From Labilibacter marinus (GTDB lineage Bacteria; Bacteroidota; Bacteroidia; Bacteroidales; Marinilabiliaceae): DNA of 49,486 bases. Positions within the stretch are counted from its first letter, which is position 1, and each line of letters starts with the position of its first letter. Made by a program: the position numbers and the translations under genes. Below the pieces are notes generated by a model, which saw only the letters and a program-made list of their open reading frames with translations, did no database searches and was not told the DNA's origin. Shown in pieces: positions 7 to 31,486 of this stretch. Location: the NCBI RefSeq assembly GCF_001659685.2, contig NZ_LXYE02000040.1, forward strand, positions 1 through 49,486. Reading direction: 5' to 3'.

Positions 7-63
7 TCACTTGGTGCTCCGATTATTTAAGAAAGAATTAAAAGACAGAGTATATTTTTTCAT
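7..63 (-). CDS. Tiny leader ORF of hairpin-leader unit A (18 aa)
   Basis: The minus strand reads ATG at 63-61 and encodes MKKYTLSFNSFLNNRSTK followed by TGA at 9-7. The ATG follows the same CCTAA-rich leader (complement of 64-83, ending AAACCCTAATCT) that precedes three other tiny ORFs in this window. A hairpin lies just upstream of that leader. The start MKK is shared with two of the other units, but the hydrophobic stretch is weaker. No function is known; it could be a leader peptide or the remnant of the 5' end of a larger gene. What follows it lies off the left edge of the window. Confidence 0.35.
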   Translation of the reverse strand: MKKYTLSFNSFLNNRSTK

Positions 64-83
64 AGATTAGGGTTTAGGTTTAC

Positions 84-115
84 AAAAAGAGCGTTTCAAC
101 GGAAGCGCTCTTTTT
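84..115 (-). repeat. Hairpin of unit A, also a probable terminator
   Basis: Bases 84-97 pair with 102-115 around a 4-nt loop, giving a 14-position stem flanked by A and T tracts. In the sense of the leader ORF (minus strand) the stem contains one C-A mismatch and the loop reads CGTT, exactly as in the unit at 24803-24836. One stem pair differs between the two copies in a compensatory way (G-C here, A-U there). The hairpin sits 20 nt after the stop of the 136-711 gene and has a U tract in that direction, so it can also terminate that gene. Confidence 0.7.
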
Positions 116-135
116 TTTGCACCCTATTATGGTGA

Positions 136-711
136 CTAAATTAATTCGTTGTTGATATAAACCATTAGAGTTTTAAGATCTTCTATTTTTTTAAATTTTA
201 GTTTTTCGCTTTTGATATATTTTTCGAGCTCTGCTATTTTATCAGGAAACAACTCACCCAATTGTTTAAAATTCTTCATTTTAACAAAATCACCCTTAGG
301 CGTTTTAATATAATATTTTGGACTCTGCCTATTATATTGCGGAGGTTTGGCATCTTGATAAGCTTTAGGTTTTTCGGAGGGAGTAAATGTTACTTCATGA
401 ATTGTAAATAAACTATACTTGCCAAGGCTAATAACCTGGGCGTAAGAAAAAGGTGAGGACTTAAACTTTATGGGAATGACTTCAAATAAAGTCTGATCCA
501 ATTTAATTCGATAATATTGCACAGTATCTTTGGTAAAACAAAAGTATTGCTCACCTTTTTTAAGTTCCATTTGGTCGTTAAAAATGTTGTAGCGAACTTT
601 CTCACCTTTATGCTCTTCGTTACCTTTGCTAATCAAAATGGCTTCTTTAAATTCATCATTATAATATGGCGAACCGTTAACCGATTCTTTGTAGCTCTCC
701 CAATCTCTCAT
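136..711 (-). CDS. Body of a Bacteroidota exported protein, separated from its signal peptide by an in-frame stop
   Basis: The 191-aa product contains a pattern I associate with exported Bacteroidota proteins of unknown role: GSPYYNDEF near residues 14-22, then VRYNIFNDQMEL near 39-50, later YYIKTPKG, and a C-terminal Lys-rich part ending with a Tyr-Ile-Asn motif. Such proteins normally begin with a signal peptide, and none is present here. In the same frame immediately upstream, separated only by TAA and two codons, is a 34-codon ORF with a clear signal peptide (718-822). The simplest reading is that one gene of about 228 codons carries a nonsense codon. Translation restarted at 711 would give a cytoplasmic, probably non-functional product. 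Function unknown. Confidence 0.6.
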   Translation of the reverse strand: MRDWESYKESVNGSPYYNDEFKEAILISKGNEEHKGEKVRYNIFNDQMELKKGEQYFCFTKDTVQYYRIKLDQTLFEVIPIKFKSSPFSYAQVISLGKYSLFTIHEVTFTPSEKPKAYQDAKPPQYNRQSPKYYIKTPKGDFVKMKNFKQLGELFPDKIAELEKYIKSEKLKFKKIEDLKTLMVYINNELI

Positions 712-717
712 TTTTAG

Positions 718-822
718 TTACTGTACATCTTGCATCAATGATTGCGCACTTTGAGATATTCCTTGAGCTTTTACCTGAAATATAACTAAGGCTAGAGCTA
801 TAATAAGATATATGTTTTTCAT
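718..822 (-). pseudogene. Signal-peptide fragment upstream of and in frame with the 136-711 ORF
   Basis: ATG at 822-820 begins MKNIYLIIALALVIFQVKAQ, a typical Sec signal peptide with a cleavage site after KA, followed by GISQSAQSLMQDVQ and a TAA at 720-718. The next two codons (Leu, Lys) lead directly into the ATG at 711 in the same frame. The fragment supplies exactly the part that the downstream protein lacks. A nonsense mutation or a sequencing error is the likely cause. Confidence 0.6.
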
Positions 823-954
823 TTGAGAGTGCTTTTTAGATATCTAAAAGTAAGTTTTTTAATAGATTAAAATCGAAAGGTTGCCATAAAATAGGCATTG
901 CTGTAGTATTTTTATGGTTATATTCGAGACGTATTTTTTAAGAAAAGGTAGCTA

Positions 955-1332
955 ATGAAATTTTTAGGGAATTTAATTTGGTTGATATTCGGTGGTTTTA
1001 TGATAGCGATAGAATATCTTATAGCAAGTATTTTAATGATGGTAACCATTGTTGGTATTCCTTTTGGCATGCAGACATTAAAGTTAGCCAGTATTACATT
1101 TTGGCCTTTTGGACGTGAGGCTGTTCCTGCGCAAAGAGCATCTGGTTGTTTGTATACTTTGATGAATGTTATCTGGATTGTTTTTGCTGGTATTTGGATT
1201 GCATTATCTCATGTTTTCTGGGGTTTAATTCTGTGCATAACTATTGTTGGAATACCTTTTGGTCAGCAACATTTTAAGCTAGCATCCGTAGCATTAACAC
1301 CTTTTGGACGAGACATTAGATATAAGAACTAA
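955..1332 (+). CDS. yccF: YccF domain inner-membrane protein
   Basis: This 125-aa protein holds two YccF (DUF307) repeats: TIVGIPFG near residues 31-38 and again near 96-103, each followed by a KLAS...PFGR segment (about 43-54 and 108-119). Each repeat is preceded by a hydrophobic membrane segment, so the protein should be inserted in the cytoplasmic membrane with about four helices. YccF proteins have no agreed function. The length fits the family. It is followed after 10 nt by the DUF417 gene, probably in one operon. Confidence 0.9.
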   Translation: MKFLGNLIWLIFGGFMIAIEYLIASILMMVTIVGIPFGMQTLKLASITFWPFGREAVPAQRASGCLYTLMNVIWIVFAGIWIALSHVFWGLILCITIVGIPFGQQHFKLASVALTPFGRDIRYKN

Positions 1333-1342
1333 ACATTGCATC

Positions 1343-1783
1343 ATGAAGAATTTTATAAGTCGTTTATTTAAAACAATAGGTGTTTTTATACTTAGATATG
1401 GATTAGGCCTAGTGATTATATGGCTTGGCTTTTTAAAATTTAAAAATACCGAAGCTGAGTATACTCACCAACTTATTTCGGGTGGATATTTATCGTGGGT
1501 TTTAAAATATCTTACACCATACGCACTAAACCAAATAATTGCTTATTTACAAATCATTATTGGACTGCTTATCATGCTAAAACCAGTTTCCCGACCTTTA
1601 TCTTTTTGGGGCGGAGTGGTTGCTTCCATTATGTTTTTGTTTAGTATATCTTTGTTATTTACAACCCACGTAGTTTGGCAAACGGGATATGGTTTCCCAG
1701 AATTATCTAAAATAGGACAAACTGTATTAAAAGATTTTGTATTGTTTGGGGCTGCTGCATGGTGTGTGGGAGATAGTGTGTAG
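1343..1783 (+). CDS. DUF417 family membrane protein (RclC/YkgB-like)
   Basis: The 146-aa product (MKNFISRLFK start) has about four membrane helices and the C-terminal signature GFPELSKIGQTVLKDFVL, which matches the GFP-LS-G-VLKD pattern of E. coli RclC, an inner-membrane protein needed for reactive chlorine resistance. An in-frame ATG at 1304 lies inside yccF, so 1343, ten bases after the yccF stop, is the better start. It is shorter than E. coli RclC because the long loop after the first helix is compact. Family membership is firm; a role in oxidant resistance is inferred from the family only. Confidence 0.85.
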   Translation: MKNFISRLFKTIGVFILRYGLGLVIIWLGFLKFKNTEAEYTHQLISGGYLSWVLKYLTPYALNQIIAYLQIIIGLLIMLKPVSRPLSFWGGVVASIMFLFSISLLFTTHVVWQTGYGFPELSKIGQTVLKDFVLFGAAAWCVGDSV

Positions 1784-1805
1784 TTTATAATATTAAAAAA
1801 AGAGG

Positions 1806-2387
1806 ATGGTTAAAAGAGCATGTGTTTTTTGTGCATCAAGTTCAAAAATAGATAAGGTTTATAACGAAGCAGCAATAGAGCTGGGTAATGTATTGGCCGA
1901 AAATAACTGGGCGATGAATTACGGAGGAGGTGCCGTTGGATTAATGGGCGCTGTAGCTGATAGCATGTTGGCAAAGAAAGGTGTGATTACAGGAATAATT
2001 CCTCGCTTTATGGTGGAAGTTGAGTGGGAACACAAAGGCGTAAAGGATATGGTTCATGTAGAAACCATGGCTGAAAGAAAAGAACTTTTAGTAAAGGATG
2101 TGGATGCAGTTATTACTTTACCTGGTAGCACAGGAACCTTAGAGGAGCTTTTTGAGGTTTTATCGAATAAAAAGCTAGGCTTGTTTTCGAAACCTGTCAT
2201 ACTAATCAATACAAATGGTTTCTTTAACCCTTTGATTGCTATGTTAGAAAAAATGATTGAAGAAAACTTTATGCGAGTAGATCATGGCGAATTATGGACT
2301 GTGGTCAATGATCCTAAAGATGTTATTGCAGCTATTGATGCCAATCAAATTTGGCGAGAAGATCCACTTAAAATAGCAACTGTTTAA
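1806..2387 (+). CDS. LOG family protein (TIGR00730 type)
   Basis: A 193-aa Rossmann-fold protein with the family landmarks CVFCASSS (6-13), YGGGAVGLMG (39-48), MAERKELL (88-95) and LPGSTGTLEE (105-114). Members act as nucleoside 5'-monophosphate phosphoribohydrolases (cytokinin-activating LOG enzymes in plants, AMP/CMP/GMP hydrolases in bacteria). The usual PGGxGTxxE motif is PGSTGTLEE here, with Ser for the second Gly; the catalytic Glu and the Arg of the MAERK helix are present. Bacterial substrate unknown. It starts 22 bp after the DUF417 gene. Confidence 0.88.
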   Translation: MVKRACVFCASSSKIDKVYNEAAIELGNVLAENNWAMNYGGGAVGLMGAVADSMLAKKGVITGIIPRFMVEVEWEHKGVKDMVHVETMAERKELLVKDVDAVITLPGSTGTLEELFEVLSNKKLGLFSKPVILINTNGFFNPLIAMLEKMIEENFMRVDHGELWTVVNDPKDVIAAIDANQIWREDPLKIATV

Positions 2388-2416
2388 TTATAGCTTAGAA
2401 AAAACATACAAATTAT

Positions 2417-2424
2417 TATTTTTG
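2417..2424 (+). promoter_or_regulatory. Candidate -7 promoter box for the DUF4271-hemD operon
   Basis: TATTTTTG matches the Bacteroidota -7 consensus TAnnTTTG and ends 15 nt before the ATG at 2440. No clear -33 TTG was seen at the usual distance. Confidence 0.5.
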
Positions 2425-2439
2425 CAGAAAACCCATTGA

Positions 2440-3648
2440 ATGAATCCATCGGCCAACATATATTACACGTTACCACAAGAAAGAGTGTCTAATCCGCAAG
2501 TAAATATTGCTGCCCAAGTCCCAGTTGGTGATTCATTAAAGGTAAATGTTCCAAAACCTTCAATTTCTCAAATTCCTGAAGTACCTAAGCGTTTTCAAAC
2601 ACCCAAGGCACCTATCGTTGTAAAGAAGATTGAGTTTATTCCTTCAGCAAAGGATTCCATTGAATTTAATCTTAAAACAAAATCACAGCAGAATCAAGGT
2701 TTTTTAAATCATACGGTAGTTGATGATTTTCTTGAACCTATCTCGCAAAGCGATAAAATGTGGGTTAAAGGTTCGGTAAATAGTAAAATACAATACCACT
2801 CTGGAGCTAGTCTTGAGGAGAAAGCTGAAGAGAAGCAACAAGACCATGAAGGTGCTAAGCGTAAAGAAAGCGATACAATAAGAGTAATTCCGGTTTCAGA
2901 TTCTACTTATATTACAAGTTCCGATAGTATTAAGGCACAAAATGATTCTATAGATGTAGTCCAAAAAGAGCTTATTGTACAAGAAAAAGTAAATATTGAA
3001 GAAAAAGACTCATCAAGAGATGTATTAACAGGTCTGTTGATTCTAGCTGTGGCTGTAACTGGCGTTATTAGATTAACAAACTTTAAATATCTACAGGATT
3101 TATTTTCTTCAGTTGTTTTTAGTCAGTATGCTCGTAAAATGCAAAAGGAAGAAAATATGCGTAACCAAAAAGCAGGGTTTGCATTAAGTATCCTTTTTCT
3201 ATTTAATACTTCCTTGTTTATATACGAGTACATTCATTACAATAATATCAAAACATTTGTTGATGATAGCCTGATTTTAATACCTATAGCAATGGGTTTA
3301 GTGATGGCTTTTGGTGTTGTGAAAGGATTACTTTACCGTTTTGTGTCGTTTGTTTTTGAAAGCACACAAGAAACCAATGATTATATTTTTTATACCAAAT
3401 TACACGATAAAATATTTGGCTTAATTATTTTACCCGTTATATTGGTAGTGCCATATATCGATCCAGAAGCCTTGCCATTGCTGTTTAATGTGGGGATTGG
3501 AATTTTCATTTTACTGTATATAATACAATTATTTAGAGGATTGTTAATTATTTTAAGAGATGTAGCATCATTGTTTTACATGTTTTTGTATCTTTGTGCC
3601 CTAGAAATTTTGCCTTTAGTTATTATGTATAACATACTTATTAATTAG
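2440..3648 (+). CDS. DUF4271 domain-containing membrane protein
   Basis: This 402-aa protein has an N-terminal half of about 185 residues that is polar, Pro/Lys/Ser-rich and probably disordered, then about six hydrophobic helices in the C-terminal half (first near residues 195-212). The membrane part matches the Bacteroidota DUF4271 family, which is usually encoded directly before uroporphyrinogen-III synthase, as here (36 bp gap). The genomic link to hemD is widely seen in the phylum, but no biochemical role is established. There is no N-terminal signal peptide; the start is placed by the promoter box 16 bp upstream. Confidence 0.8.
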   Translation: MNPSANIYYTLPQERVSNPQVNIAAQVPVGDSLKVNVPKPSISQIPEVPKRFQTPKAPIVVKKIEFIPSAKDSIEFNLKTKSQQNQGFLNHTVVDDFLEPISQSDKMWVKGSVNSKIQYHSGASLEEKAEEKQQDHEGAKRKESDTIRVIPVSDSTYITSSDSIKAQNDSIDVVQKELIVQEKVNIEEKDSSRDVLTGLLILAVAVTGVIRLTNFKYLQDLFSSVVFSQYARKMQKEENMRNQKAGFALSILFLFNTSLFIYEYIHYNNIKTFVDDSLILIPIAMGLVMAFGVVKGLLYRFVSFVFESTQETNDYIFYTKLHDKIFGLIILPVILVVPYIDPEALPLLFNVGIGIFILLYIIQLFRGLLIILRDVASLFYMFLYLCALEILPLVIMYNILIN

Positions 3649-3683
3649 GCATTAGGAACAGTGAAATTAAAATAAACAACGTT

Positions 3684-4436
3684 TTGAAGATTAAAAGAAT
3701 TCTGGTTTCCCAGCCAAAACCACAAACTGAAAAGTCTCCTTACTTCGAATTAGCTGATAAAAGCAATGTAAAAATTGATTTTCGTCCGTTTATTCAGGTA
3801 GAGAGCGTACCCACTAAAGAATTCCGTACGCAAAAGGTAAATATACTTGACCATACAGCGGTCATTTTTACCAGCAGAACAGCGATCGATAATTATTTTC
3901 GTGTTGCTGAAGAGATGAGAATCACTGTACCAGACTCCATGAAGTATTTTTGTATTTCTGAAGCTACGGCTTATTATTTACAAAAGTATATCGTTTATCG
4001 TAAAAGAAAGATTTTTCATTCAACAGGTAAATTCCCTGACTTAATTGAGGTAATCAAAAAGCACAAGGATGAAACTTATTTAGTGCCTCTTTCGGATATT
4101 CATAAACAAGAGATTCCTGATTTATTGGATAAGAATAAAATCAAGTACTCAAAAGCTATCTTATACAGAACTGTAAGCAGTGACTTGAGCGATTTGAAAG
4201 ATATCAATTACGATATTCTAGTATTCTTTAGCCCTTCAGGAATTGCAAGTTTGTTGCAAAATTTCCCTGATTGGGATCAGAATGAAACAAAAATTGCATC
4301 ATTCGGACCTGCAACAGCTAAAGCGGTAAAAGAAGCAGGTTATCGTTTAGATATTCAGGCTCCAATGCCACAAGCTCCATCTATGACGATGGCACTTGAG
4401 CAGTTTATTAAAAAGCACAATAAGGCTCAAAAGTAA
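3684..4436 (+). CDS. hemD: Uroporphyrinogen-III synthase
   Basis: The 250-aa product fits HemD, the cytoplasmic enzyme that cyclises hydroxymethylbilane to uroporphyrinogen III in tetrapyrrole synthesis. It opens with the ILVSQPKPQ segment typical of Bacteroidota HemD. It has the two-domain pattern with AVIFTSRTAIDNYF in the first domain and ILVFFSPSGIASL plus IASFGPATAKAVKEAGY in the second. The start codon is TTG. It follows the DUF4271 gene and ends 25 bp before a strong terminator, so the two genes form a transcription unit. Confidence 0.88.
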   Translation: MKIKRILVSQPKPQTEKSPYFELADKSNVKIDFRPFIQVESVPTKEFRTQKVNILDHTAVIFTSRTAIDNYFRVAEEMRITVPDSMKYFCISEATAYYLQKYIVYRKRKIFHSTGKFPDLIEVIKKHKDETYLVPLSDIHKQEIPDLLDKNKIKYSKAILYRTVSSDLSDLKDINYDILVFFSPSGIASLLQNFPDWDQNETKIASFGPATAKAVKEAGYRLDIQAPMPQAPSMTMALEQFIKKHNKAQK

Positions 4437-4460
4437 ATTCTAGAATTTATATCATATATT

Positions 4461-4489
4461 AAAGGGCATTTTTTAATGCCCTTTTTTTC
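4461..4489 (+). terminator. Rho-independent terminator after hemD
   Basis: AAAGGGCATT (4461-4470) pairs perfectly with AATGCCCTTT (4475-4484) around a TTTT loop, followed by a T tract to 4488. Confidence 0.85.
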
Positions 4490-4509
4490 GCCCAAATAGT
4501 AAGCACCCA

Positions 4510-4929
4510 ATGCCCCAAGAGTCTTTCAAATTTCCTAAAAAAGAAAAGTTATGCAGCCACATTGTTATTGAGGAGCTGTTTTCAAAAGGAGAGTCTTTTG
4601 TGTGTTTTCCTTTTAGAGTCATTTACTTGCCCACAGAATTACCCGAGGATGTACCTGCTCAAGTACTTTTTAGTGTTTCGAAAAGGCGATTTAAAAGAGC
4701 TGTGCATCGCAACCTATTAAAAAGAAGAAGTAGAGAAGCTTATCGTTTAACCAGAGGTGCGTTTATTGAATATCTGGAAAAATCAGATCAACAAATAGCT
4801 TTTGCAATGGTTTATATATCAGGTGATCAGTTGCCATATGCTAAAATTTGTAAGGGTATGAAAAAGGGCATGAAAAAGTTGGAGGAAAAGCTGATAGAAA
4901 AACAGGCAAAGGAAGATGTGGTTGACTAA
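4510..4929 (+). CDS. rnpA: Ribonuclease P protein component
   Basis: A 139-aa basic protein. The RNase P protein signature is visible near the middle: [19 protein letters not shown] with the following EAYR helix, the conserved Arg-rich RNA-binding region that contacts the RNase P RNA and pre-tRNA leader. The N-terminal [19 protein letters not shown] matches the family. It overlaps yidD by 14 bp, so the two are translationally coupled. The usual neighbours rpmH, yidC and dnaA are absent, as often in Bacteroidota. Confidence 0.93.
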
Positions 4930-5164
4930 TATTTACAAAAGCATTGTGTCGGGTATTGTGTTTATACTCATTATACCTATAAAAATATATCAGTATACTA
5001 TTTCTCCTATGCTTGGAGCTGCTTGCAGATATACTCCAAGCTGTTCTACCTATAGTATTCAAGCCTTAAAAAAGCATGGCCCCATTAAAGGAAGTTATTT
5101 AGCGATTAAAAGAATATTGAGCTGTAATCCGTGGGGTGGACATGGGCACGATCCAGTTCCATAG
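4916..5164 (+). CDS. yidD: Membrane protein insertion efficiency factor YidD
   Basis: An 82-aa protein with the family motif YQYTISPML, the Cys-rich [19 protein letters not shown] segment and the terminal [13 protein letters not shown]. YidD is a small membrane-associated protein that assists YidC-dependent membrane insertion. The ATG at 4916 lies inside rnpA in another frame, giving a 14-bp overlap and clear translational coupling. The N-terminal hydrophobic stretch (about residues 7-22) is the membrane-association helix. Confidence 0.93.
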
Positions 5165-5245
5165 CAGGATATTGGTAAATTTTAAAATCATCATAGAAAA
5201 TAACATTAAAAAGATTATTTTCGTGAGTTAATTAATATAAATAAA

Positions 5246-5584: not shown

Positions 5585-5586
5585 TC

Positions 5587-6414: not shown

Positions 6415-6428
6415 TACGTTTTAAACAG

Positions 6429-8262: not shown

Positions 8263-8274
8263 TTTAATCTCTAT

Positions 8275-23048: not shown

Positions 23049-23111
23049 TTTATTAGTTTTAAATAAGTAGGTTATAAAATATATTATTGTGCAATTTATA
23101 TAAATAGCTTG

Positions 23112-24656
23112 TTAATTACTATTTGAGCTTTGCTTTGTTCTTCTTTGGTTGATGTTAATTGTGGCTCCAAAATATATTGTTATAGTGCTGAGGCGACTGT
23201 TCATGATATGCTGTCGGATACCTTGCAAAGCTGAATTGTCAATTGAATTAAATTCATTAGGATGAGAAAAATTAGCAAATTGTTTTTTGTTATTTTCTAC
23301 CCCATAAGTGTACTGGAATCCGGCAATTAAATCTTGTCCCATAATGCGAAGGTTTAATCCACTGGTAACATGATATTTATTTAGATTTAATTGCTTAAAA
23401 GAATTTAAGCTTGAAGGCATTTGACTTTCATTTAAGGAATAATTAAAATCAGTTCTAAAACCTGTTAAAATCATCAAATTTTCTTTCACCAACCATTTGT
23501 ACCCAGTTGCGAAATTAAAAACAGGTTTAGCACCAGATACAAATGTAAGCCACTCGTTTAAATTGATAATATCCGAAACTTCGTTGTCGGCAGAAATCCT
23601 GTTCCCTTTGGCTTCAACCATTCTGTATGGATCAATACCAGCAAAGTATTCTCCTGTTAAAAATAACGTTTTATTTTCGTTAGAATTGGTATAGGTTAAA
23701 CCTGTAGCTATCGAAAAGGTGCTTTTGGCATTTACCATAACCTCATTTTTCTCTTTATAGCTTGAAATTAATATATCTGGCAGTAGTTCGTCATTAGTAG
23801 GGTTGGCAATATTACCTTGGCTTCTTTTTCTAAATACTTCTTTACCGTTAGAATATATTTGGCCAATGGATGGAGTTGTGATGTTTAAACCAAGGCTTAA
23901 TCTTTCTTTTTTATAAAGTAATCCTACTTTAAATAGAAGTCGATAATCGTAAAATTTCACAAATTCATGCTCAGATGAATGCGCAATGCTTCGATTGAAG
24001 CTATATTGATCAGGTATCTCTAAATCCGGAACCGCTTCCGTTTCAACATCGTAAATATATTCCTTAGATATATAAGAAACAAACATACTAGTTCCCAGAT
24101 AGAGGTGATCAGCTACCTGCACGGAGCCACCAATGCCAATCCAATTATCCCTATATTTATTTAAATATTTATAATAGGCATCGTAGCGCTCTTCGCCTGG
24201 GTATCTATTTAAAACATCAATTTGCTGACTAAATGATTTGGTATCCTGAACGCTATAATCAGAATTATTTAAAAAAGCTACTTCAAAGCTCCATTTCTCA
24301 AGCCTTTTAGGCTTCAGCATATACGATAAAAAGCGAGGAACAACCACTCCTCTGTTATATTTTAAATCGATTCCATCTCCCCATGCATTATTCGCTTTTA
24401 AAAATTCAAAGGCAAAAAGACTAACGTTTAAAGAGAATTTAGATTCTTTAATTTCTGAAATTGTTGCTGGATTGTAAAAGATTGCTGCAGGTCCTGCTCC
24501 ACCTCCAACAACAGCTCCTGATAATAGAGATGATTCTTCATTAAAATTGCGCGACCAGTGATTATTGGACTGCGCGGAAAGGTTAAAGGGGAATGTAACC
24601 TGCACTGCGAGCAATAATCCAATGTTATATATATAATAGAGTTTGTGTTTTCTCAT
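23112..24656 (-). CDS. FadL/PorV-like outer-membrane protein
   Basis: A 514-aa exported barrel protein with a signal peptide ending near FNLSAQ. The mature N-terminus contains AGPAAIFYNPATISE, the NPA motif typical of FadL/OmpP1 family hatches. Alternating strands follow, and a C-terminal strand (STITIYFGATININ) precedes a short Asn/Ser-rich tail. It could transport hydrophobic substrates or act as a PorV-like shuttle; the sequence does not decide. Confidence 0.75.
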   Translation of the reverse strand: MRKHKLYYIYNIGLLLAVQVTFPFNLSAQSNNHWSRNFNEESSLLSGAVVGGGAGPAAIFYNPATISEIKESKFSLNVSLFAFEFLKANNAWGDGIDLKYNRGVVVPRFLSYMLKPKRLEKWSFEVAFLNNSDYSVQDTKSFSQQIDVLNRYPGEERYDAYYKYLNKYRDNWIGIGGSVQVADHLYLGTSMFVSYISKEYIYDVETEAVPDLEIPDQYSFNRSIAHSSEHEFVKFYDYRLLFKVGLLYKKERLSLGLNITTPSIGQIYSNGKEVFRKRSQGNIANPTNDELLPDILISSYKEKNEVMVNAKSTFSIATGLTYTNSNENKTLFLTGEYFAGIDPYRMVEAKGNRISADNEVSDIINLNEWLTFVSGAKPVFNFATGYKWLVKENLMILTGFRTDFNYSLNESQMPSSLNSFKQLNLNKYHVTSGLNLRIMGQDLIAGFQYTYGVENNKKQFANFSHPNEFNSIDNSALQGIRQHIMNSRLSTITIYFGATININQRRTKQSSNSN

Positions 24657-24802
24657 AAAACCAAAAACTGACCATGATTGACAATGTAATTTTAAATGGG
24701 TTTTACCATTAGCAAATTAACAATAAGTAAGTAACTATAGCAATTTTTGAAACGTCAAATAAAATATTTGTAATGAAAAAGGGTTCTTCAATTATGCGCA
24801 TA

Positions 24803-24836
24803 AAAAAAGAGCACTTCCGTTGAAATGCTCTTTTTT
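24803..24836 (+). repeat. Hairpin of leader unit B
   Basis: AAAAAAGAGCACTTC (24803-24817) pairs with GAAATGCTCTTTTTT (24822-24836) around a CGTT loop, with one C-A mismatch. Loop, mismatch position and A/T flanks are identical to unit A, with one compensatory pair change. It is followed directly by the shared leader AAACTTAAACCCTAATCT. Confidence 0.75.
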
Positions 24837-24854
24837 AAACTTAAACCCTAATCT

Positions 24855-24905
24855 ATGAAAAAAAACTTACTCTTTGTCTGTGTTCTTGCGGTTCTGAAAA
24901 AATAA
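24855..24905 (+). CDS. Tiny leader ORF of unit B (16 aa)
   Basis: ATG 24855 encodes MKKNLLFVCVLAVLKK and stops with TAA at 24903-24905. The peptide looks like a truncated signal peptide: two Lys, then a hydrophobic core. The TAA lies inside the left arm of the next hairpin (unit C), so translation to the stop would disrupt that hairpin. Together with units A, C and D this is the evidence that it is more than a chance ORF. Its role is unknown. Confidence 0.4.
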   Translation: MKKNLLFVCVLAVLKK

Positions 24906-24934
24906 TCGAGGCATCGAAAGACACCTCGATTATT
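24901..24934 (+). repeat. Hairpin of leader unit C
   Basis: AATAATCGAGG (24901-24911) pairs perfectly with CCTCGATTATT (24924-24934). The apical part can form TC-GAAA-GA, a GNRA tetraloop. The stem sequence differs completely from unit B, but its position before the same leader (AAACTTAAACCCTAACCTAATCT) is the same. Confidence 0.7.
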
Positions 24935-24957
24935 AAACTTAAACCCTAACCTAATCT

Positions 24958-24990
24958 ATGAAAAACTTAATTGCTCTCGGTATGAAATAA
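24958..24990 (+). CDS. Tiny leader ORF of unit C (10 aa)
   Basis: ATG 24958 encodes MKNLIALGMK with TAA at 24988-24990. It follows the CCTAA-rich leader at the same distance after a hairpin as in the other units. The next real gene is yfhO at 25138, which seems to have its own promoter box at 25050. The remaining bases between 24657 and 24800 hold no gene that I can see. Confidence 0.35.
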   Translation: MKNLIALGMK

Positions 24991-25049
24991 AGCAATGTTC
25001 GTGCCATAAAATGCTTCGTTTGTCAAATTAACATACATTAACTAAGTGT

Positions 25050-25057
25050 TATTTTTG
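25050..25057 (+). promoter_or_regulatory. Candidate -7 box for the YfhO gene
   Basis: TATTTTTG matches TAnnTTTG, 80 nt before the ATG at 25138. The transcript would exclude the two leader units upstream. Confidence 0.4.
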
Positions 25058-25137
25058 TGTAAGAAAATCACTTTAAAAAAGCCGTTGCACGGTATACCCT
25101 TTTTATCTATTTTTAGGCTGCTAAAAAACGTATACAA

Positions 25138-27645
25138 ATGATTGATAAATTAAAATCATCCTTACCCTACATCGGAACTGTATTACTATTTATAGTTTTA
25201 AGTTTCACTTACTTTAGTCCTGTACTAAAAAATAAAACACTACTTCAGGGTGACGATAGTCATGCTATAGGAATGGCTCAACAGCTGAAAGAGTATCAAA
25301 AAGAAACTGGAGAAACAGCACAGTGGAGCAATAGTGCATTCAGTGGAATGCCAGCCTACCAAATAAAAGGAGATAGTTCTAAAAACCTATTTTGGTATTT
25401 AAATAGAGTTAGTCGATTAGGTATGCCATATCATACGGTAGCTATTTTGTTTCTGTATTTACTGGGTTTCTTTGTATTTATGATCAGTCTTAAAATGGAC
25501 TGGCGCTTTAGTCTTGTTGGTGCCCTTGCTTTTGGTTTTGGGTCCTATAATCTTATCATAATTGTGGCTGGTCATATTACCCAAGCCTACACCATTGCTT
25601 TAATGGCTCCTGTAATAGCGGGTATCATATTTACTTACAATAGAAATATGTGGGTAGGTGGATTAATTACCACCATTGGATTGGGTTTGCAAATAGCATA
25701 CAATCATATACAGGTTACTTATTATTTGGCCTTAATGATTATGATATTAGTGATCTTTAGGTTAATATATGCTTTAGTTCACAAAACTTTTAATCATTTT
25801 GCAAAAGCTTCAGCAGTGCTTGTGGTAGCAGGTCTTTTAGCTATACTTCCGAATATAACCAATTTATGGACCACCTATGAATACGGGAAGTTAAGTATTC
25901 GTGGTAAATCAGAAATTGTAAAGGAAGGAGAGAAAGAGCACAGTGGTTTAGATAAAGGTTATGCGCATGCTTGGAGTTTAGAGCGTCAAGGAACATGGAC
26001 CTTTATGGTGCCCAATGTTGTTGGAGGAGCATCGGAGCCTATTGCGAATAATAAATCAGCATTGAGTAAGGTTGAGAGTCAATTTAAAGAAACCGTTGGC
26101 GGTCAGAGTCAATATTGGGGAGGACGCCCATTTACTTCTGGGCCTGTTTATGCAGGGGCGGTTGTTTGTTTTTTATTTATGCTGGGTATGTTCTTTTATC
26201 GTGGCCCAGATAAATGGTGGTTAGTGGCTGCTACTATTTTCTCCATCTTTTTAGCTTGGGGTAGACACTTTCCTGCATTCACCGACTTTATGTTCTATAA
26301 TTTTCCATTATACAACAAATTTAGGACGGTAGAAATGGCTACGGTAATTGCTTCCTTAACTATACCTACTCTAGGGTTTTTAGGTTTAAGAGAAATATTT
26401 AATAATCCTCAATTAGTAAGAGAAGCCAATTGGAAGTTTTTTGCAGCTTTTGGCTTAACAGGAGGGGTCAGTATTTTGTTTTACCTTTTTCCTAATGCAT
26501 TTTTCACTTTTATAAGTGATACTGAGTTGACTGCAATAGTTCAGCAAAAACAACAGGTAATGCAGCAGAATGCAGCACAAGCTAGTCAGGTTGGAACTTA
26601 TTTCGACGGTATTTTACGTAACTTAAAAGTTGCACGTGCAAGCTTATTAACTGGAGATGCTTTTAGGTCTTTTGCTTTTATTTTAATCGCCTCTGGTTCT
26701 GTTTGGTTTTATGTGACTAATAAACTTCCGGGTAAATATTTAATTTGGGGGCTAGGTTTATTGATTTTAGTAGATCATTGGAGTGTTGATAAGCGTTACT
26801 TAAATAACGATCATTTTCAAAGTAAAAGAAAAGTAGGGCAGGAGTTTAACCCTTCTAAATCGGATGATGCTATCAATCTACAAAAGAAAGATGGAGATAG
26901 AGTATTTACAGTTTATCGCGATCCATTTAAGGAAGTTGTTACATCTTATCATCATGAGTCTATAGGAGGTTATCACGGAGCCAAATTGCGTAGATATCAG
27001 GATTTGATTGAGCGATATATGATGAATGATTGGCAGAGTATTGTTTCTATATTGCAGAAGCAAGGGACAGCTCAAGAAATTCAAGGAGAATTACAAGATA
27101 TGCATGTACTAAACATGCTTAATGCCAAGTTCTTGGTGTATAGTCCTAATGCAGATCCAATCGTTAATTATAACGCTTTAGGTGATGCTTGGTTTGTAAA
27201 AGGAGTTTACCCCGTTGAAGCACCTATTGGAGCTATTGAGGCCTTGGATTATGTACCTTTGAGAGAACAAGCAGTTGTTAATATTGAGGAATTCAAAGAC
27301 CTGGTTAATTATAAGGTGGATTCAGTATCTGGAACACTGACTCTAAATACCTATGAGCCTAATTATTTAACGTATGATTATAATGTGCCTCAGGATCAGT
27401 TAGCGGTATTTTCACAAGTGTATTATCCTAAAGGTTGGAAAGCATTTATCGATGGAGAAGAAGTAGATATTAAAAGAGCCAACTATGTTTTAAGAGCAGT
27501 CATGCTTAAAGCGGGTAAACACAAGTTAGAGTTTAAGTTTGAACCAAAGTCTTTTGCTATTGGTCAAATGATATCGCTAATAAGCTCACTGATCATATTA
27601 GCATTAATTGCACTAGTGGCATTTAAAGCTTACAGAAAGAAATAG
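25138..27645 (+). CDS. YfhO family integral membrane protein
   Basis: An 835-aa protein with about 12-13 membrane helices and a C-terminal periplasmic domain followed by a last helix (about 808-830). The first loop after helix 1 carries LLQGDDSHAIGMAQQLKEY with the acidic residues typical of GT-C type enzymes; SAFSGMPAYQI follows. The C-terminal YYPKGWKAFIDGEEVDIKRANYVLRAV block is diagnostic for YfhO. Gram-positive YfhO is linked to glycosylation of lipoteichoic acid. The substrate in Bacteroidota is not known. Confidence 0.88.
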   Translation: MIDKLKSSLPYIGTVLLFIVLSFTYFSPVLKNKTLLQGDDSHAIGMAQQLKEYQKETGETAQWSNSAFSGMPAYQIKGDSSKNLFWYLNRVSRLGMPYHTVAILFLYLLGFFVFMISLKMDWRFSLVGALAFGFGSYNLIIIVAGHITQAYTIALMAPVIAGIIFTYNRNMWVGGLITTIGLGLQIAYNHIQVTYYLALMIMILVIFRLIYALVHKTFNHFAKASAVLVVAGLLAILPNITNLWTTYEYGKLSIRGKSEIVKEGEKEHSGLDKGYAHAWSLERQGTWTFMVPNVVGGASEPIANNKSALSKVESQFKETVGGQSQYWGGRPFTSGPVYAGAVVCFLFMLGMFFYRGPDKWWLVAATIFSIFLAWGRHFPAFTDFMFYNFPLYNKFRTVEMATVIASLTIPTLGFLGLREIFNNPQLVREANWKFFAAFGLTGGVSILFYLFPNAFFTFISDTELTAIVQQKQQVMQQNAAQASQVGTYFDGILRNLKVARASLLTGDAFRSFAFILIASGSVWFYVTNKLPGKYLIWGLGLLILVDHWSVDKRYLNNDHFQSKRKVGQEFNPSKSDDAINLQKKDGDRVFTVYRDPFKEVVTSYHHESIGGYHGAKLRRYQDLIERYMMNDWQSIVSILQKQGTAQEIQGELQDMHVLNMLNAKFLVYSPNADPIVNYNALGDAWFVKGVYPVEAPIGAIEALDYVPLREQAVVNIEEFKDLVNYKVDSVSGTLTLNTYEPNYLTYDYNVPQDQLAVFSQVYYPKGWKAFIDGEEVDIKRANYVLRAVMLKAGKHKLEFKFEPKSFAIGQMISLISSLIILALIALVAFKAYRKK

Positions 27646-27669
27646 AGTTGAGAAATAAAACGATAGATG

Positions 27670-27696
27670 AGGGAGCTTAATGCTCCCTTTTTTTTT
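27670..27696 (+). terminator. Rho-independent terminator after the YfhO gene
   Basis: GGGAGC (27671-27676) pairs with GCTCCC (27682-27687) around TTAAT, followed by nine T. It lies 25 bp past the stop codon and before the convergent phosphatase gene. Confidence 0.85.
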
Positions 27697-27704
27697 GCTG
27701 CAGA

Positions 27705-28937
27705 TTATTTGAATTCGATACCTGTAATAGTAATATCATCAAATACAGAGCCTGTTTCTAATTGGTCTTTAATAAGTTCTTTTAAGGCAGTCATGTTACT
27801 CTCAATACTCTCTTCATTTGAGATAATTTCTTCAATCGGTTCCATGCCCGATTCAATTTGATCGCCATTTTCAAGTTCAACTAAACCATCTGTAAAGGCT
27901 AAAAATTTTGCATTACGAGGCACTCTGATCTTACCTAATTCAATGGCTGGTATATCATCAAGCATACCTAAACCAATGCAACCCTTATCAAGGTTATTTA
28001 GCGTCTTTTTCTTAGGATCGAAAAGTATCGGAGGTAAATGCCCCGCGTTAATATAAGTAAGCTTACGCGTGATGGTATTGTATTTGCCCAAAAACATGGT
28101 GATAAATTTCTCGTTATTGGCGCTCTGGTTTACCTTTTTGTTCAGTTGATGTGCTAACTTTTTTAAGTTGATATTAGGCGTATATAATGTGCGAAATACC
28201 GCTTGAAAGTTAGACATTAACATGGCAGCAGATATTCCTTTTCCAGATACATCGGCAATGCAAAAACCTAATACGCTTTTTGAGAGACGAATGAAATCGT
28301 AATAATCACCTCCAACTTCAAATTGAGGATGATAAAAAGTATGGATATTGTATTTGTTACTAACGGGTAAATGGTTATCAGCAGGAACCAGTTTTGTCTG
28401 AATCCTTGAAGCAAGCTCCATCTCCTTACGCATAATCTCTTGCTCAAGCAAGGCATTCTGCATTCTCTTATTCTCAATAAATACAATAATAAGGTTAGAG
28501 ATAATTTGAATGAGCTTTAAATGCTTTATGGTAGGACTAATGCCCGTATGTTCTTCATCCACATCTCCAATTAGTACAAAGCCTATCGCTTTATATCTAT
28601 GAAATAATGGAATAACGGCATCAAATCCTTTTAGTTGAGGCGGGTGAGAAATAGTAATGTTTTCAATATTTTGATATTGAATCAAATCGCGTTCAACATC
28701 AATGTCACCTACTTCTGCTTTGGTAACACCAGAGTTAAGCAGGTTTTTCCAAACGTCATCCGCATTGGTAAAAACCAAAATTTTGCCTACTTCTAATTCT
28801 TCACGTAAAAGTATTTCAAATTCAGAGAGCAAATCGTCAATACTATGATCCTCATTAATTGTTTGAGCAATATCAAGAAGTATATTTAATCTGTCTTTAA
28901 ATAATCGAAGTCTTTTTTTCTGAAGTTGGGTTACCAT
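27705..28937 (-). CDS. PP2C-type (SpoIIE/RsbU) serine phosphatase with N-terminal GAF-like domain
   Basis: A 410-aa cytoplasmic protein. Residues of about 15-165 look like a GAF sensor domain. A short coiled-coil linker (about 160-185, EMELASRIQTKLVP) leads to the phosphatase domain with the metal-binding motifs GGDYYDF, IADVSGKGISAAM, NAGHLPPI and LAFTDGLVELEN. Such enzymes dephosphorylate anti-sigma antagonists or STAS proteins. The partner is not adjacent; the STAS-like protein at 7804 is only a remote possibility. Confidence 0.9.
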   Translation of the reverse strand: MVTQLQKKRLRLFKDRLNILLDIAQTINEDHSIDDLLSEFEILLREELEVGKILVFTNADDVWKNLLNSGVTKAEVGDIDVERDLIQYQNIENITISHPPQLKGFDAVIPLFHRYKAIGFVLIGDVDEEHTGISPTIKHLKLIQIISNLIIVFIENKRMQNALLEQEIMRKEMELASRIQTKLVPADNHLPVSNKYNIHTFYHPQFEVGGDYYDFIRLSKSVLGFCIADVSGKGISAAMLMSNFQAVFRTLYTPNINLKKLAHQLNKKVNQSANNEKFITMFLGKYNTITRKLTYINAGHLPPILFDPKKKTLNNLDKGCIGLGMLDDIPAIELGKIRVPRNAKFLAFTDGLVELENGDQIESGMEPIEEIISNEESIESNMTALKELIKDQLETGSVFDDITITGIEFK

Positions 28938-29062
28938 AAATTATTTAGAGTATTCTTATACGAGGCGTTAAGTTATTAATTTTTTTTGAGCTAGTGAAGG
29001 TGAATCTCTTATTTATGACTCTTTGTGCTTTTTATAATTAAATAGCGTCAACTATATTTAAT

Positions 29063-29092
29063 AAAAAAAAGCCTTGCGGTAACAAGGCTTTT
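29063..29092 (-). terminator. Terminator after efp
   Basis: GCCTTG (29071-29076) pairs with CAAGGC (29083-29088), with A and T tracts at both ends. On the minus strand it is followed by eight U and lies 14 bp beyond the efp stop. Confidence 0.8.
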
Positions 29093-29105
29093 ATGTGCAT
29101 GCTGC

Positions 29106-29675
29106 TTATTTTTTTACACGTTCAACATATGAACGGTCGCGTGTATCAACTTTAATCCAGTCTTCGGTATTTACGAATAAAGGAACCATAATTTGTGAAC
29201 CTGTATCAATAGTAGCTGGTTTTAATGAGTTAGTAGATGAAGTGTCTCCACGTACACCTGGCTCAGTATAAGTTACTTCAAACTCAATATACATAGGAAG
29301 CTCAACCGATAATGGAGTTTCTGTGTCTGCATGATATATTATTTCACACGCCAAGCCATCTTTTAATAAATCATGATTTTCAATAATCTTTTCTTCGATA
29401 GATACTTGCTCGTATGATTCATTATTCATGAAAACATAACCCATATCATCCTTATATAAGTATTGATAAGAACGTCTTTCAACTCTTTGCTCATTAATTT
29501 TATGTCCAGCTGAAAAAGTGTTGTCAATAACTTTTCCTGTTGAGATACTTTTAAGTTTAGTACGAACAAAAGCTGGGCCTTTACCCGGTTTTACATGCTG
29601 AAACTGCACAATTGCAAACAAATCATTTTTAAATTCGATGCACATCCCGTTTCTAATATCAGCTGTAGTTGCCAT
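29106..29675 (-). CDS. efp: Elongation factor P
   Basis: The 189-aa tRNA-shaped factor rescues ribosomes stalled at consecutive prolines. Its three domains are visible: N-terminal KOW-like domain with HVKPGKGPAFVRTKLK (the tip lysine K32 in PGKG, the residue modified in many bacteria), the OB domain around EYEQVSIEEK-like strands, and the C-terminal GDTSSTNSLKPATIDTG with the conserved signature. Full length. It has its own promoter box and terminator. Confidence 0.96.
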   Translation of the reverse strand: MATTADIRNGMCIEFKNDLFAIVQFQHVKPGKGPAFVRTKLKSISTGKVIDNTFSAGHKINEQRVERRSYQYLYKDDMGYVFMNNESYEQVSIEEKIIENHDLLKDGLACEIIYHADTETPLSVELPMYIEFEVTYTEPGVRGDTSSTNSLKPATIDTGSQIMVPLFVNTEDWIKVDTRDRSYVERVKK

Positions 29676-29716
29676 AGTGTTATAAATTAATTCTTTGTAA
29701 ATACAATATCGTGGTG

Positions 29717-29724
29717 CAAAAATA
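29717..29724 (-). promoter_or_regulatory. Candidate -7 box for efp
   Basis: The minus strand reads TATTTTTG, a match to TAnnTTTG, 41 nt before the efp ATG. Confidence 0.45.
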
Positions 29725-29770
29725 TACCAAATCCTTTAAATTGCTAATATTTATTGCGATTAATCTATGC

Positions 29771-30562
29771 CTATTTGCCAAAAGCATTTTTTAATCCTTT
29801 GTGTTCTATGAGTTCGCAGCTAAAGGATCCTACCTTAAGATTAACCTTGGCTTTTATAGGAATGTGGTTTTTGTCGCGCGTTACCCAAATTTTCATATCT
29901 TCTTCAGTTTCAAAGGCTCGTCCTACTTCTGTAACAGGATGAAAGAGATAGCATTCCGTTCTTCCAAAATTAGTGCTGATGGTTTGGTTGCCCATATATT
30001 TAATTTTTAAGGGAAATATCTCATCATCAAAATAAGTCGTAAATTCTAGTATTTCACCTTTCTTCATACTATCGTTAAACCTATATCTACGCGCAAAATA
30101 AAAAGCAGAAACAATATCATGAATGTTAGGAGGCACCCTTACTTCGCCTGATTTTTTGCTCTGAATTTTAATAGAATCCTGATATAACGAATCGTAATTA
30201 TAAGTTACTTCGTTATAATATTTGTATTTACCTTCGCGGATATCTCTAACCGATTTTAATGGCTGGTCAGAATCGGGGTTGATAAAGCTGAGGTATTTAT
30301 CTCTTACTTTAAAAACTGCGTCAATCATGCCCGAGGTTTTTGCAAATAACTCTAGCTCATGGGTATTATATCCATTCCATAAAGTATCTTTAACACTAAA
30401 AGAGATATAGCCGCCTTTAACAAAACCATATTTTAATGAATAGGTAAGTTTTTCTCCTGGTTGGTAGGCTATATTACCGTTCAAATCTCGTTCTGACGCA
30501 AACGTATTTTGGGCACACAGAATAAAAATACTTAATAATACTGAAGCGAGTAGTTTATACAT
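29771..30562 (-). CDS. DUF3108 domain-containing periplasmic protein
   Basis: A 263-aa protein with a signal peptide (LLSIFILCAQNTFA) and the DUF3108 signature AYQPGEKLTYSLKYGFVKGG at the mature N-terminus. The strands KYKYYNEVTYNYD, EFTTYFDDEIFPLKIKYMG and IWVTRDKNHIPIKAKVNLKVGS complete the lipid-binding-like barrel. The family is common in Bacteroidota and Proteobacteria and has no proven role. It lies 50 bp downstream of tsaB on the same strand, possibly co-transcribed. Confidence 0.85.
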   Translation of the reverse strand: MYKLLASVLLSIFILCAQNTFASERDLNGNIAYQPGEKLTYSLKYGFVKGGYISFSVKDTLWNGYNTHELELFAKTSGMIDAVFKVRDKYLSFINPDSDQPLKSVRDIREGKYKYYNEVTYNYDSLYQDSIKIQSKKSGEVRVPPNIHDIVSAFYFARRYRFNDSMKKGEILEFTTYFDDEIFPLKIKYMGNQTISTNFGRTECYLFHPVTEVGRAFETEEDMKIWVTRDKNHIPIKAKVNLKVGSFSCELIEHKGLKNAFGK

Positions 30563-30612
30563 AGTTAATGATTTTAGGATTTAACTATTGGTAAAACAAT
30601 TTTCAGACCAAA

Positions 30613-31320
30613 TTAGAATATCTTCTTTTTAGGTGTCGTGGCTACAAAGTCTTTCAAGTAAAAAGGTTCAAAATAAGCCACATCAACAAAATCTTGCAGT
30701 TCAAACTTAGCATGTGCAATATTTACCATGTTACGTGCCAGCGGAGCTTGACCGTCCAAGAAAATAGCGTTGCTGCTTTTGATGGTTTCTTTACATTTTT
30801 CAGCTCCATCACCCAAGAAAACAATGGAGCTTTCTTTCAGTTCATCTTGATAACTATCTTCTTCAATTATTTCGGCACTAATTTTATCTTTCATTTTCAT
30901 GCTGGCATCAAAAAGTACAGTATATACTTCCATTCTGCGGGCATCAATCATCGGACAAAACATTGTGTTTTCATCAACTTTACCTTCCAATTCAGGATGA
31001 TTAATTACTGATTGAGCCAAGCTTTCTAATGAAGTGATGGCAATTAATGGCTTAGATAAGGCATAGCAAATTCCTTTTGCCACAGAAACACCAATGCGTA
31101 AACCAGTGTATGAACCCGGGCCACTACTTACTGCTACTGCATCAATATCCTGAATAGAAATATCTTCTAGTTCATTAAATAACTCCTGAATAAAAATTGT
31201 AAGGTGAGTTGCATGGGAATTTGCTTCAAACAATTCCTTTTTTGCAATTATTGTATTGTCCTTTGATAAGCAAACCGAACATACCTTTGTAGATGTCTCA
31301 AGTGATAGAATCAACGCCAT
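30613..31320 (-). CDS. tsaB: tRNA threonylcarbamoyladenosine biosynthesis protein TsaB
   Basis: The 235-aa ASKHA-fold protein has ILSLETSTKVCSVCL at its N-terminus and AVSSGPGSYTGLRIGVSVAKGICYAL near 64-90, the TsaB signature. It partners TsaD and TsaE in making t6A37 on ANN-decoding tRNAs. It ends with the Pro/Lys-rich TTPKKKIF. The length is normal. Confidence 0.94.
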   Translation of the reverse strand: MALILSLETSTKVCSVCLSKDNTIIAKKELFEANSHATHLTIFIQELFNELEDISIQDIDAVAVSSGPGSYTGLRIGVSVAKGICYALSKPLIAITSLESLAQSVINHPELEGKVDENTMFCPMIDARRMEVYTVLFDASMKMKDKISAEIIEEDSYQDELKESSIVFLGDGAEKCKETIKSSNAIFLDGQAPLARNMVNIAHAKFELQDFVDVAYFEPFYLKDFVATTPKKKIF

Positions 31321-31341
31321 AAATTAATGCTTTTAAGTATG

Positions 31342-31349
31342 CAAAAATA
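31342..31349 (-). promoter_or_regulatory. Candidate -7 box for tsaB
   Basis: The minus strand reads TATTTTTG, a perfect TAnnTTTG, 21 nt before the tsaB ATG. Confidence 0.5.
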
Positions 31350-31385
31350 ACATTTTTGGCTGCAATTACATCTTTGCTGCAAAAC

Positions 31386-31420
31386 AAAAAAGAGTCATTC
31401 CGACTGGATGACTCTTTTTT
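31386..31420 (+). repeat. Hairpin of leader unit D
   Basis: AAAAAAGAGTCATTC (31386-31400) pairs with GGATGACTCTTTTTT (31406-31420) around CGACT, with one U-G pair. The stem sequence differs from units A and B while the AAAAAAGAG/CTCTTTTTT ends are kept. In the minus direction it may also terminate the 31532 gene. Confidence 0.7.
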
Positions 31421-31441
31421 ACTTAACCTAAACCCTAATTT

Positions 31442-31486
31442 ATGAAAAAAAACTTACTCTCTTTTTGCCTGATGATACGCCTTTAA
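31442..31486 (+). CDS. Tiny leader ORF of unit D (14 aa)
   Basis: ATG 31442 encodes MKKNLLSFCLMIRL with TAA at 31484-31486. The first six residues equal those of unit B. The peptide resembles the first part of a Bacteroidota signal peptide. The leader before it (ACTTAACCTAAACCCTAATTT) matches the other units. No gene in the same direction follows before 34515, so this unit is solitary. Confidence 0.4.
   Translation: MKKNLLSFCLMIRL

What the first reader, a model, noticed from the sequence alone, without database searches (positions are those of the whole stretch)
7..31486. A family of hairpin + CCTAA leader + tiny ORF units, four copies in this window
Units at 7-115 (minus), 24803-24905, 24901-24990 and 31386-31486 share one plan: an A/T-flanked hairpin of 11-15 bp, an 18-23 nt spacer ending AAACCCTAA(CCTAA)T(C/T)T, and an ATG opening a 10-18 codon ORF (MKKYTLSF, MKKNLLFV, MKNLIALG, MKKNLLSF). 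Stem sequences differ while pairing is kept. A and B have the same CGTT loop and the same mismatch, and one stem pair switches G-C to A-U. Three of the peptides look like truncated signal peptides. I know of no named element of this form. Possible roles: a regulatory leader, a vestige of the 5' ends of larger (for example SusC-like) genes, or a dispersed mini-element.
Basis: partly seen in the sequence, partly recalled or inferred. Interest (0 to 1): 0.75.

Follow-up and report, generated by a model that had tools for sequence, protein, structure and literature searches.

The report
FopS-like sRNA genes, read backwards
What looked like tiny protein genes behind hairpins are, on the opposite DNA strand, probably a family of small regulatory RNA genes whose front end is antisense to the start codons of sugar-transporter messages, and many of them seem to be switched on by a stress sigma factor instead of the housekeeping one.

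Summary
Each unit is a ~70-nt small-RNA gene on the opposite strand: 'CTATGAAAAA' is the antisense image of the RNA's 5' seed (UUUUUCAUAG), 'CCTAAACCCTAA' the rest of the seed, the hairpin its 3' terminator. The FopS model (RF04319) aligns end to end (35.4 bits; cut-off 56, not reached). A model from five copies hits 57 of 71 genomes of the family, own included. The stem covaries at 14 of 14 pairs, and its wobble pairs (93 G-U, 5 A-C) fix the strand. Seeds pair with 30 SusC start regions better than with matched background; 0 of 40 shuffled seeds do as well. Unlike FopS (TAnnTTTG promoter in 19 of 19 read), 50 of 120 relatives carry a strict sigma-54 box (72 with a looser form) and 7 an ECF-like promoter. 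Many lie in tandem pairs. All 9 genomes of the window's genus lack an RRM_1 protein. Similar sigma-54 boxes precede dnaK, htpG, hsp20 and lon. Best reading: FopS-like sRNAs placed under stress sigma factors, repressing outer-membrane glycan transporters. Expression and repression are inferred, not shown.

The parts
1..20 (+). Truncated unit A': terminator hairpin of a first tandem unit, cut by the contig start
   Evidence: Folds as an 8-bp hairpin; same form as first-unit terminators of relatives such as L143
51..121 (+). Unit A: sRNA gene (seed, then terminator hairpin)
Evidence: R1 89.4 bits (a training sequence); FopS 30.8 bits.
24798..24867 (-). Unit B: second sRNA of a tandem pair
   Evidence: R1 92.3 bits (training sequence); FopS 35.4 bits, end to end
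24896..24970 (-). Unit C: first sRNA of the tandem pair
   Evidence: R1 44.6 bits (not a training sequence); FopS 22.0 bits
24992..25006 (-). Sigma-54 type -24/-12 box TGGCACgaacaTTGC upstream of C and B
   Evidence: class statistics
25028..25042 (-). Direct repeat GTTAA-N5-GTTAA, 21 nt upstream of the box: proposed activator site
31382..31454 (-). Unit D: single sRNA gene
   Evidence: R1 71.5 bits (training sequence); FopS 26.3 bits
31474..31501 (-). ECF-type promoter of D: GTAAC-N17-CGTATC
31506..31520 (-). GTTAA-N5-GTTAA upstream of the D promoter
   Evidence: Sequence
25138..27645 (+). YfhO-type membrane protein gene, stable neighbour of the units
   Evidence: PF09586; beside FopS-like units in six other genomes of the genus

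Best explanation
The units are genes for a family of trans-acting, base-pairing small RNAs of the FopS type, on the strand opposite to the one described. Each RNA has a single-stranded 5' seed of about 30 nt (U-run, then CAUAGAUUAGGGUUUAAG...) and a 3' hairpin with a U tail that ends transcription. The seed is antisense to the translation start of messages that begin ...CTATGAAAAA, SusC-like glycan transporters prominent among them, and most likely blocks ribosome loading there. In this lineage many copies sit under stress sigma factors: tandem pairs behind a sigma-54 promoter with an upstream GTTAA-N5-GTTAA site, single copies such as D behind an ECF-like promoter, a minority behind a housekeeping-type promoter. 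Under protein or envelope stress the cell would make chaperones and proteases from sigma-54 promoters and, through these RNAs, stop making abundant outer-membrane transporters. Shown by computation: strand, structure, family spread, promoter-like classes, seed-SusC complementarity. Inferred: transcription, stress induction, translational repression, co-transcription of pairs.
For: FopS aligns end to end on the opposite strand, in 5 of 6 own-genome loci scanned at 26-35 bits; six of the units are its six best listed hits in the genome. R1: 57 of 71 family genomes at E<=0.01, own included. Stem: 97.7% of cells paired, 14 of 14 pairs changed on both sides, covariation 0.894 v 0.216 shuffled; 93 G-U v 5 A-C cells; T tail richer on this strand in 70 of 93. 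ORF not conserved. Sigma-54 box strict in 50 of 120 (dinucleotide shuffles 0.065; 0 of 861 ORF upstreams), ECF-like in 7 of 120 (0.03). rpoN and enhancer-binding proteins present. GTTAA repeat at 10-bp period. SusC pairing. A known relative represses SusC translation (PMC11697453, abstract and passages).
Against: No expression data. Best FopS score in the own genome is 36.6 bits, under the 56-bit cut-off; unit D and the first units are missing or weak there. No RRM_1 gene in the genus, so the known partner protein is lacking. 15 of 120 copies have no assigned promoter and 21 second-of-pair copies no visible one of their own. Seed K shows no SusC preference over other ORF starts; many non-SusC genes rank high. 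Unit D lies directly upstream of, and in the direction of, the TsaD-family gene in all five genomes seen, so a local role for D is not excluded. Motif classes were written after looking at the sequences, and the 120 copies are related, not independent.
Confidence: 0.8

Rival explanations
1. A cis-acting leader with a tiny regulatory peptide: hairpin, CCTAA spacer and short ORF on the stated strand, controlling something downstream.
For: Hairpin, spacer and ATG do recur on that strand, and three of the four peptides look like signal-peptide starts.
Against: ORF length 2-61 codons and identity lost after ATGAAAAA plus two bases; stem pairing is worse on that strand (90.4% v 97.7%); promoter-like boxes lie on the other strand.
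Confidence: 0.03
2. Vestiges of the 5' ends of SusC-like or other secreted-protein genes, or a dispersed mini-element carrying such an end.
For: MKK-type starts; multi-copy; up to 18 matches in one relative (G045).
Against: Conserved block runs from promoter to terminator of the other strand, not into a coding sequence; orthologous places kept beside YfhO in six and beside the TsaD-family gene in four other genomes; strong compensatory change in the stem. Ends of copies were not searched for target duplications.
Confidence: 0.03
3. Real FopS-like sRNAs, but with main targets other than SusC: for example many start regions ATGAAAAA, or cis control of neighbours such as the gene after unit D.
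For: Top predicted partners include many non-SusC genes, several with signal-peptide-like starts; much of the seed is simply antisense to ATGAAAAA; D always precedes the same gene in the five genomes seen.
Against: SusC starts pair better than genes with the same ATGAARA start (p about 1e-5 to 2e-5, n=22 v 145), also without the U-run (p 0.0022 for B, 0.00016 for J), and better than with 40 of 40 shuffled seeds. FopS does repress SusC in B. thetaiotaomicron (PMC11697453, passages).
Confidence: 0.2

Closest known systems
FopS, family of paralogous sRNAs (Rfam RF04319; B. thetaiotaomicron, PMC11697453, abstract and passages seen)
   Same: 65-70 nt plan, UUUUUCAU-type 5' seed, 3' terminator hairpin as the only structure, many paralogues, predicted pairing with SusC starts; 10-bp-spaced TTAA repeat upstream also found in FopS loci
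   Different: Below the curated score; sigma-54 or ECF-like promoters instead of TAnnTTTG in most assigned copies; tandem pairs; genus without RRM_1 protein; seed altered (AGAUUAGGGUUUAGG)
GibS sRNA (Rfam RF04182)
   Same: R1-type 5' seed; pair C-B spans the model
   Different: 24-30 bits against a cut-off of 115; R2 seed not tested; two seeds and two hairpins in the pair
Qrr sRNAs of Vibrio (PMC8043402, start of abstract in the listing only; sigma-54/LuxO control recalled)
   Same: Works like: several paralogous sRNAs under sigma-54 with an activator
   Different: Unrelated in sequence (no Qrr match in the permissive scans); other phylum, other targets
Sigma-E dependent RybB and MicA (PMC1804206, start of abstract in the listing only)
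   Same: Works like: a stress sigma factor drives sRNAs that lower outer-membrane protein synthesis
   Different: Other sigma factor and phylum; no match to those families

Membership tests
FopS RF04319 | Curated gathering score (56 bits) | tested here: not met
   Best in own genome 36.6 bits; 1 of 71 family genomes over the cut-off
FopS RF04319 | 5' unpaired R1-type seed, UUUUUCAU... | tested here: met
   End-to-end alignment
FopS RF04319 | Single 3' terminator hairpin with U tail | tested here: met
FopS RF04319 | Multi-copy family in one genome | tested here: met
   11 copies read in the own genome; up to 18 matches in a relative
FopS RF04319 | Canonical housekeeping (sigma-ABfr, TAnnTTTG) promoter | tested here: not met
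   5 of 120 TAnnTTTG, 50 strict plus 22 loose sigma-54, 7 ECF-like; FopS-type loci 19 of 19 TAnnTTTG
FopS RF04319 | Association with the RRM protein RbpB | tested here: not met
   No RRM_1 gene in 9 of 9 genomes of the genus; other families of RNA-binding protein not searched
FopS RF04319 | Translational repression of SusC-like messages | tested here: inconclusive
   Pairing predicted and significant; no experiment
GibS RF04182 | Curated gathering score (115 bits) | tested here: not met
   30.1 and 24.1 bits
Qrr; RybB/MicA | Match to their Rfam models | tested here: not met
   Not among the matches up to E 10 in six loci or up to E 5 in window 24700-25100
   Not among matches, each of which scanned the whole of Rfam 15 (that these two are in it is recalled)

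The most novel reading that the evidence does not exclude
In Marinilabiliaceae-type Bacteroidota a FopS-like sRNA family has been rewired from the housekeeping promoter to stress sigma factors (sigma-54, and ECF for some copies) while keeping the seed, the terminator and a far-upstream GTTAA-N5-GTTAA activator site. It thereby became the outer-membrane arm of the sigma-54 chaperone regulon, a Bacteroidota counterpart of sigma-E/RybB, working without an RRM protein in the window's genus and partly as two-seed tandem RNAs.
Probability: 0.5. Interest if true: 0.78.

Novelty: new variant of a known kind. Interest (0 to 1): 0.62.

Why it matters
FopS was described, by a strict BLAST (word size 28), as a Bacteroidaceae family with a canonical promoter, and its authors saw no strong sub-diversification (PMC11697453, passages). 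Here close kin occur across a family of environmental Bacteroidota with at least two other promoter types, a case of the sigma-factor diversification that those authors name as a possibility for sRNA paralogues in general. It would tie translational control of glycan transporters to the sigma-54 chaperone regulon reported for Bacteroidota (PMC12316311, passages; 'sRNA' and 'small RNA' have 0 occurrences in its main text) and offers a defined operator with which to find the unknown FopS activator. It also shows a trap for annotation: a seed antisense to start codons reads as a row of tiny signal-peptide genes.

Tried and rejected
Reading the unit as leader plus peptide: rejected. Rfam at gathering threshold gives nothing in the window; the lead came from the permissive scan, run on six fetched loci and on window 24700-25100, not on the whole window. 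Mobile element: rejected on synteny. First alignment A1 misaligned the first-unit seeds, so the model was built from five copies A, B, D, E, G (A2); these score high by construction. R1 also predicts a small stem inside the seed; I left it out of the pair counts because FopS has none there. Own-genome R1 hit C8:48015 has no seed and looks like an ordinary terminator; the weaker FopS hits L034-L041 show no such seed on inspection. FopS search of the own genome scored 150 of 1555 candidates, and unit D (26.3 bits) is absent from its list. Rows dropped before promoter counts: 18 of 140 model matches (17 without the seed anchor I required, among them five genuine-looking genus-g18 copies with TTCTTCAT, several reverse-strand shadows of hairpins; 1 duplicate), then 2 with under 75 nt upstream, unit A one of them; one shadow (L139:704-810) stayed in the 120 as 'none'. 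The sigma-54 pattern follows the recalled consensus; the ECF and GTTAA patterns were written after seeing the sequences. In the spacing test other distances are also raised (for example 36 of 72 at 20 bp; FopS 9 of 18 at 9 and 12 bp), 10 bp being the peak. Target test: 30 of 34 over-cut-off SusC genes (those returned as loci); starts are first in-frame ATGs; energies ignore accessibility; shuffles keep base content only. Seed D was not tested. Of 39 sigma-54-like sites in the own genome 30 were examined; the reversed control pattern gives 20, so many single sites are chance; Pfam was run on 10 of the downstream ORFs, 9 had a match. Literature: sigma 54 + small RNA + Bacteroidetes + promoter, 0 papers; Marinilabiliales + sRNA, 0; FopS + Bacteroides + sRNA, 2; heat shock + RpoN + Bacteroidetes + dnaK, 5. 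The library lacks most subscription papers.
Full report
What is there. Reading around these and weaker hits showed that three loci hold two units in a row (24.8-25.0 kb of the window, C27, end of C33) and that the window's first 20 bases are the hairpin of a further unit cut by the contig start. In all, 11 copies were read: A, B, C, D in the window, E and F on C27, G and H on C33, I on C33, J on C2, K on C4, plus the truncated A'. H, I, J and K are diverged (24-27 bits with the model R1).

Which strand. A permissive Rfam scan of six own-genome loci put the unit on the opposite strand under RF04319, FopS, in five of them, at 26.3-35.4 bits against a gathering score of 56. The alignment of unit B covers the whole model: FopS GUGUUUUUCAUgGUAUUAGAUUUAAGGUUAA.. 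against GUUUUUUUUUCAUAGAUUAGGGUUUAAGUUUAA.., then hairpin and U tail. FopS searched over the own genome lists 14 hits at E up to 10; the six best are units I, B, G, A, E and J (150 of 1555 candidates were scored, and unit D is not in the list). Three features fix the strand. (2) T richness after the stem is higher on this strand in 70 of 93, equal in 9, lower in 14.

Spread. R1, built from copies A, B, D, E, G, matches 57 of 71 genomes of the GTDB family at E up to 0.01, own included, with up to 18 matches in one, but only 5 of 394 other genomes over the phylum at E up to 0.001 (stricter filters). One of these five hits (G300:C12) is a locus that FopS itself finds over its cut-off. FopS in turn hits 42 of 71 family genomes at E up to 0.05, 1 over the cut-off. 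An exact 26-base motif scan of named genomes gave Labilibacter sediminis and Plebeiibacterium marinum, both Marinilabiliaceae. Stem covariation: 14 of 14 pairs changed on both sides, score 0.894 against 0.216 in shuffles and 0.066-0.133 when slid; the alignment was fitted to the model and leans towards it.

Not mobile, not a general leader. Units lie beside the same YfhO gene in six other genomes of the genus (pairs in G046, G047, G048, G051, G052; one unit in G049), and unit D beside the same TsaD-family gene in four. The gene downstream of pair C-B on its own strand (23112-24656) had no match in the 24 loci searched, and unit A faces a convergent ORF. Unit D, however, always lies directly upstream of, and in the direction of, the TsaD-family gene, so a local role for D is open.

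Promoters. Of 140 model matches 122 rows were kept and 120 have 75 nt upstream. Of the 120, 50 carry TGGCA[CT]N5TTG[CA] (dinucleotide shuffles: mean 0.065, maximum 1) and 72 at least the looser form (0.595, maximum 4); 0 and 6 of 861 own-genome ORF upstreams (60 nt) do. Seven carry [GTA]AAC-N14-19-CGTA[TC]C (0.03, maximum 1; 1 of 861 ORFs), window unit D among them. Twenty-one are second members of pairs with no visible promoter of their own, 5 have TAnnTTTG, 15 are unassigned, some of these near misses of the sigma-54 form. By contrast 19 of 19 FopS-type loci read (18 of 41 over-cut-off hits, one) have TAnnTTTG and none the sigma-54 box. The own genome has rpoN and, of 19 matches to the sigma-54 activator domain, twelve at 115 bits or more.

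A shared upstream site. In 72 sigma-54-class copies, TTAA pairs spaced by 10 bp (one mismatch allowed) occur in 61 (30 shuffles: mean 16.4, maximum 23). In the window's genus GTTAA-N5-GTTAA with at most one mismatch ends 21-22 nt before the -24 box in 16 of 23. In 18 FopS loci the 10-bp spacing is also the peak, 12 of 18 (4.1, maximum 8), and the best match ends 68-70 nt before the CAT in 14 of 18. Unit D has the repeat too. Of 30 sigma-54-like sites examined in the own genome only the three sRNA sites have it without mismatch at 21-22 nt. I infer one activator kept across a change of sigma factor; this is the boldest step and rests on sequence alone.

What else the sigma factor may serve. Other sites of that scan lie 47-76 nt before ORFs that Pfam names Hsp70, Hsp90, Hsp20, Lon and thioredoxin, and 42-62 nt before an outer-membrane barrel, an M16 peptidase and an LpoB-type protein. 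With 39 sites against 20 for the reversed pattern single sites can be chance, but sigma-54 control of chaperones in Bacteroidota is in print (PMC12316311, passages). So the sRNAs would belong to a stress regulon.

Targets. Thirty SusC start regions (of 34 genes over the cut-off) were paired with the seeds. Mean energies were -14.3 (A, B) and -13.0 (J) kcal/mol against -10.0, -10.4 and -8.5 for 847 other ORF starts. The difference holds against 417 signal-peptide-like genes and against 145 genes with the same ATGAARA start (22 SusC; p about 1e-5 to 2e-5), and 0 of 40 shuffled seeds reach it. Without the U-run it is smaller but remains (p 0.0022 for B, 0.00016 for J). For seed B the duplex spans the start codon in 27 of 30. 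Seed K shows no preference over other ORFs, and many non-SusC genes rank high. FopS blocks SusC translation in this way in B. thetaiotaomicron (PMC11697453, abstract and passages).

RRM protein. RbpB, the RRM protein that opposes FopS in Bacteroides, has no RRM_1 counterpart in 9 of 9 genomes of the window's genus, while 44 of 71 family genomes have one. Here the sRNAs do without it or use another protein.

Verdict. A FopS-like sRNA family outside the group where FopS was described: not a member of RF04319 by score, promoter or partner protein, but with the same body plan and probably the same target class. A new variant of a known kind. Expression, stress induction and repression remain to be shown.

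Noticed in passing
own genome: L339, L337, L331, L328, L340: Sigma-54-like boxes 47-76 nt upstream of Hsp70, Hsp90, Hsp20, Lon and thioredoxin genes: sigma-54 looks like the chaperone sigma factor of this bacterium.
   Followed up: partly
genus of the window, 9 genomes: RRM_1 proteins missing in 9 of 9 genomes, present in 14 of 14 of genus g7 and 44 of 71 of the family: a genus-level loss of the RbpB-type protein, if the search missed none.
   Followed up: partly
C33:90935-91016 and C2:169597-169675 (L019, L009): A second, about 82-nt FopS-like subfamily (seed AUAGAUUUAGAUUUAAC) with TAnnTTTG promoter; FopS hits of similar length recur in many family genomes, and its seed pairs with SusC starts most specifically.
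   Followed up: partly
31532-34345: SprB-repeat protein with a type IX secretion tail lies next to unit D here; it had no match at the D place in the relatives searched.
   Followed up: no
L258 (G064:C41:116-182): The only FopS over the cut-off in the family lies at a contig edge of a draft genome and has a typical FopS promoter: possibly contamination.
   Followed up: no
45119-45155 with 45254-45290: Imperfect 37-bp inverted repeat, 73% complementary, 98 nt apart.
   Followed up: no
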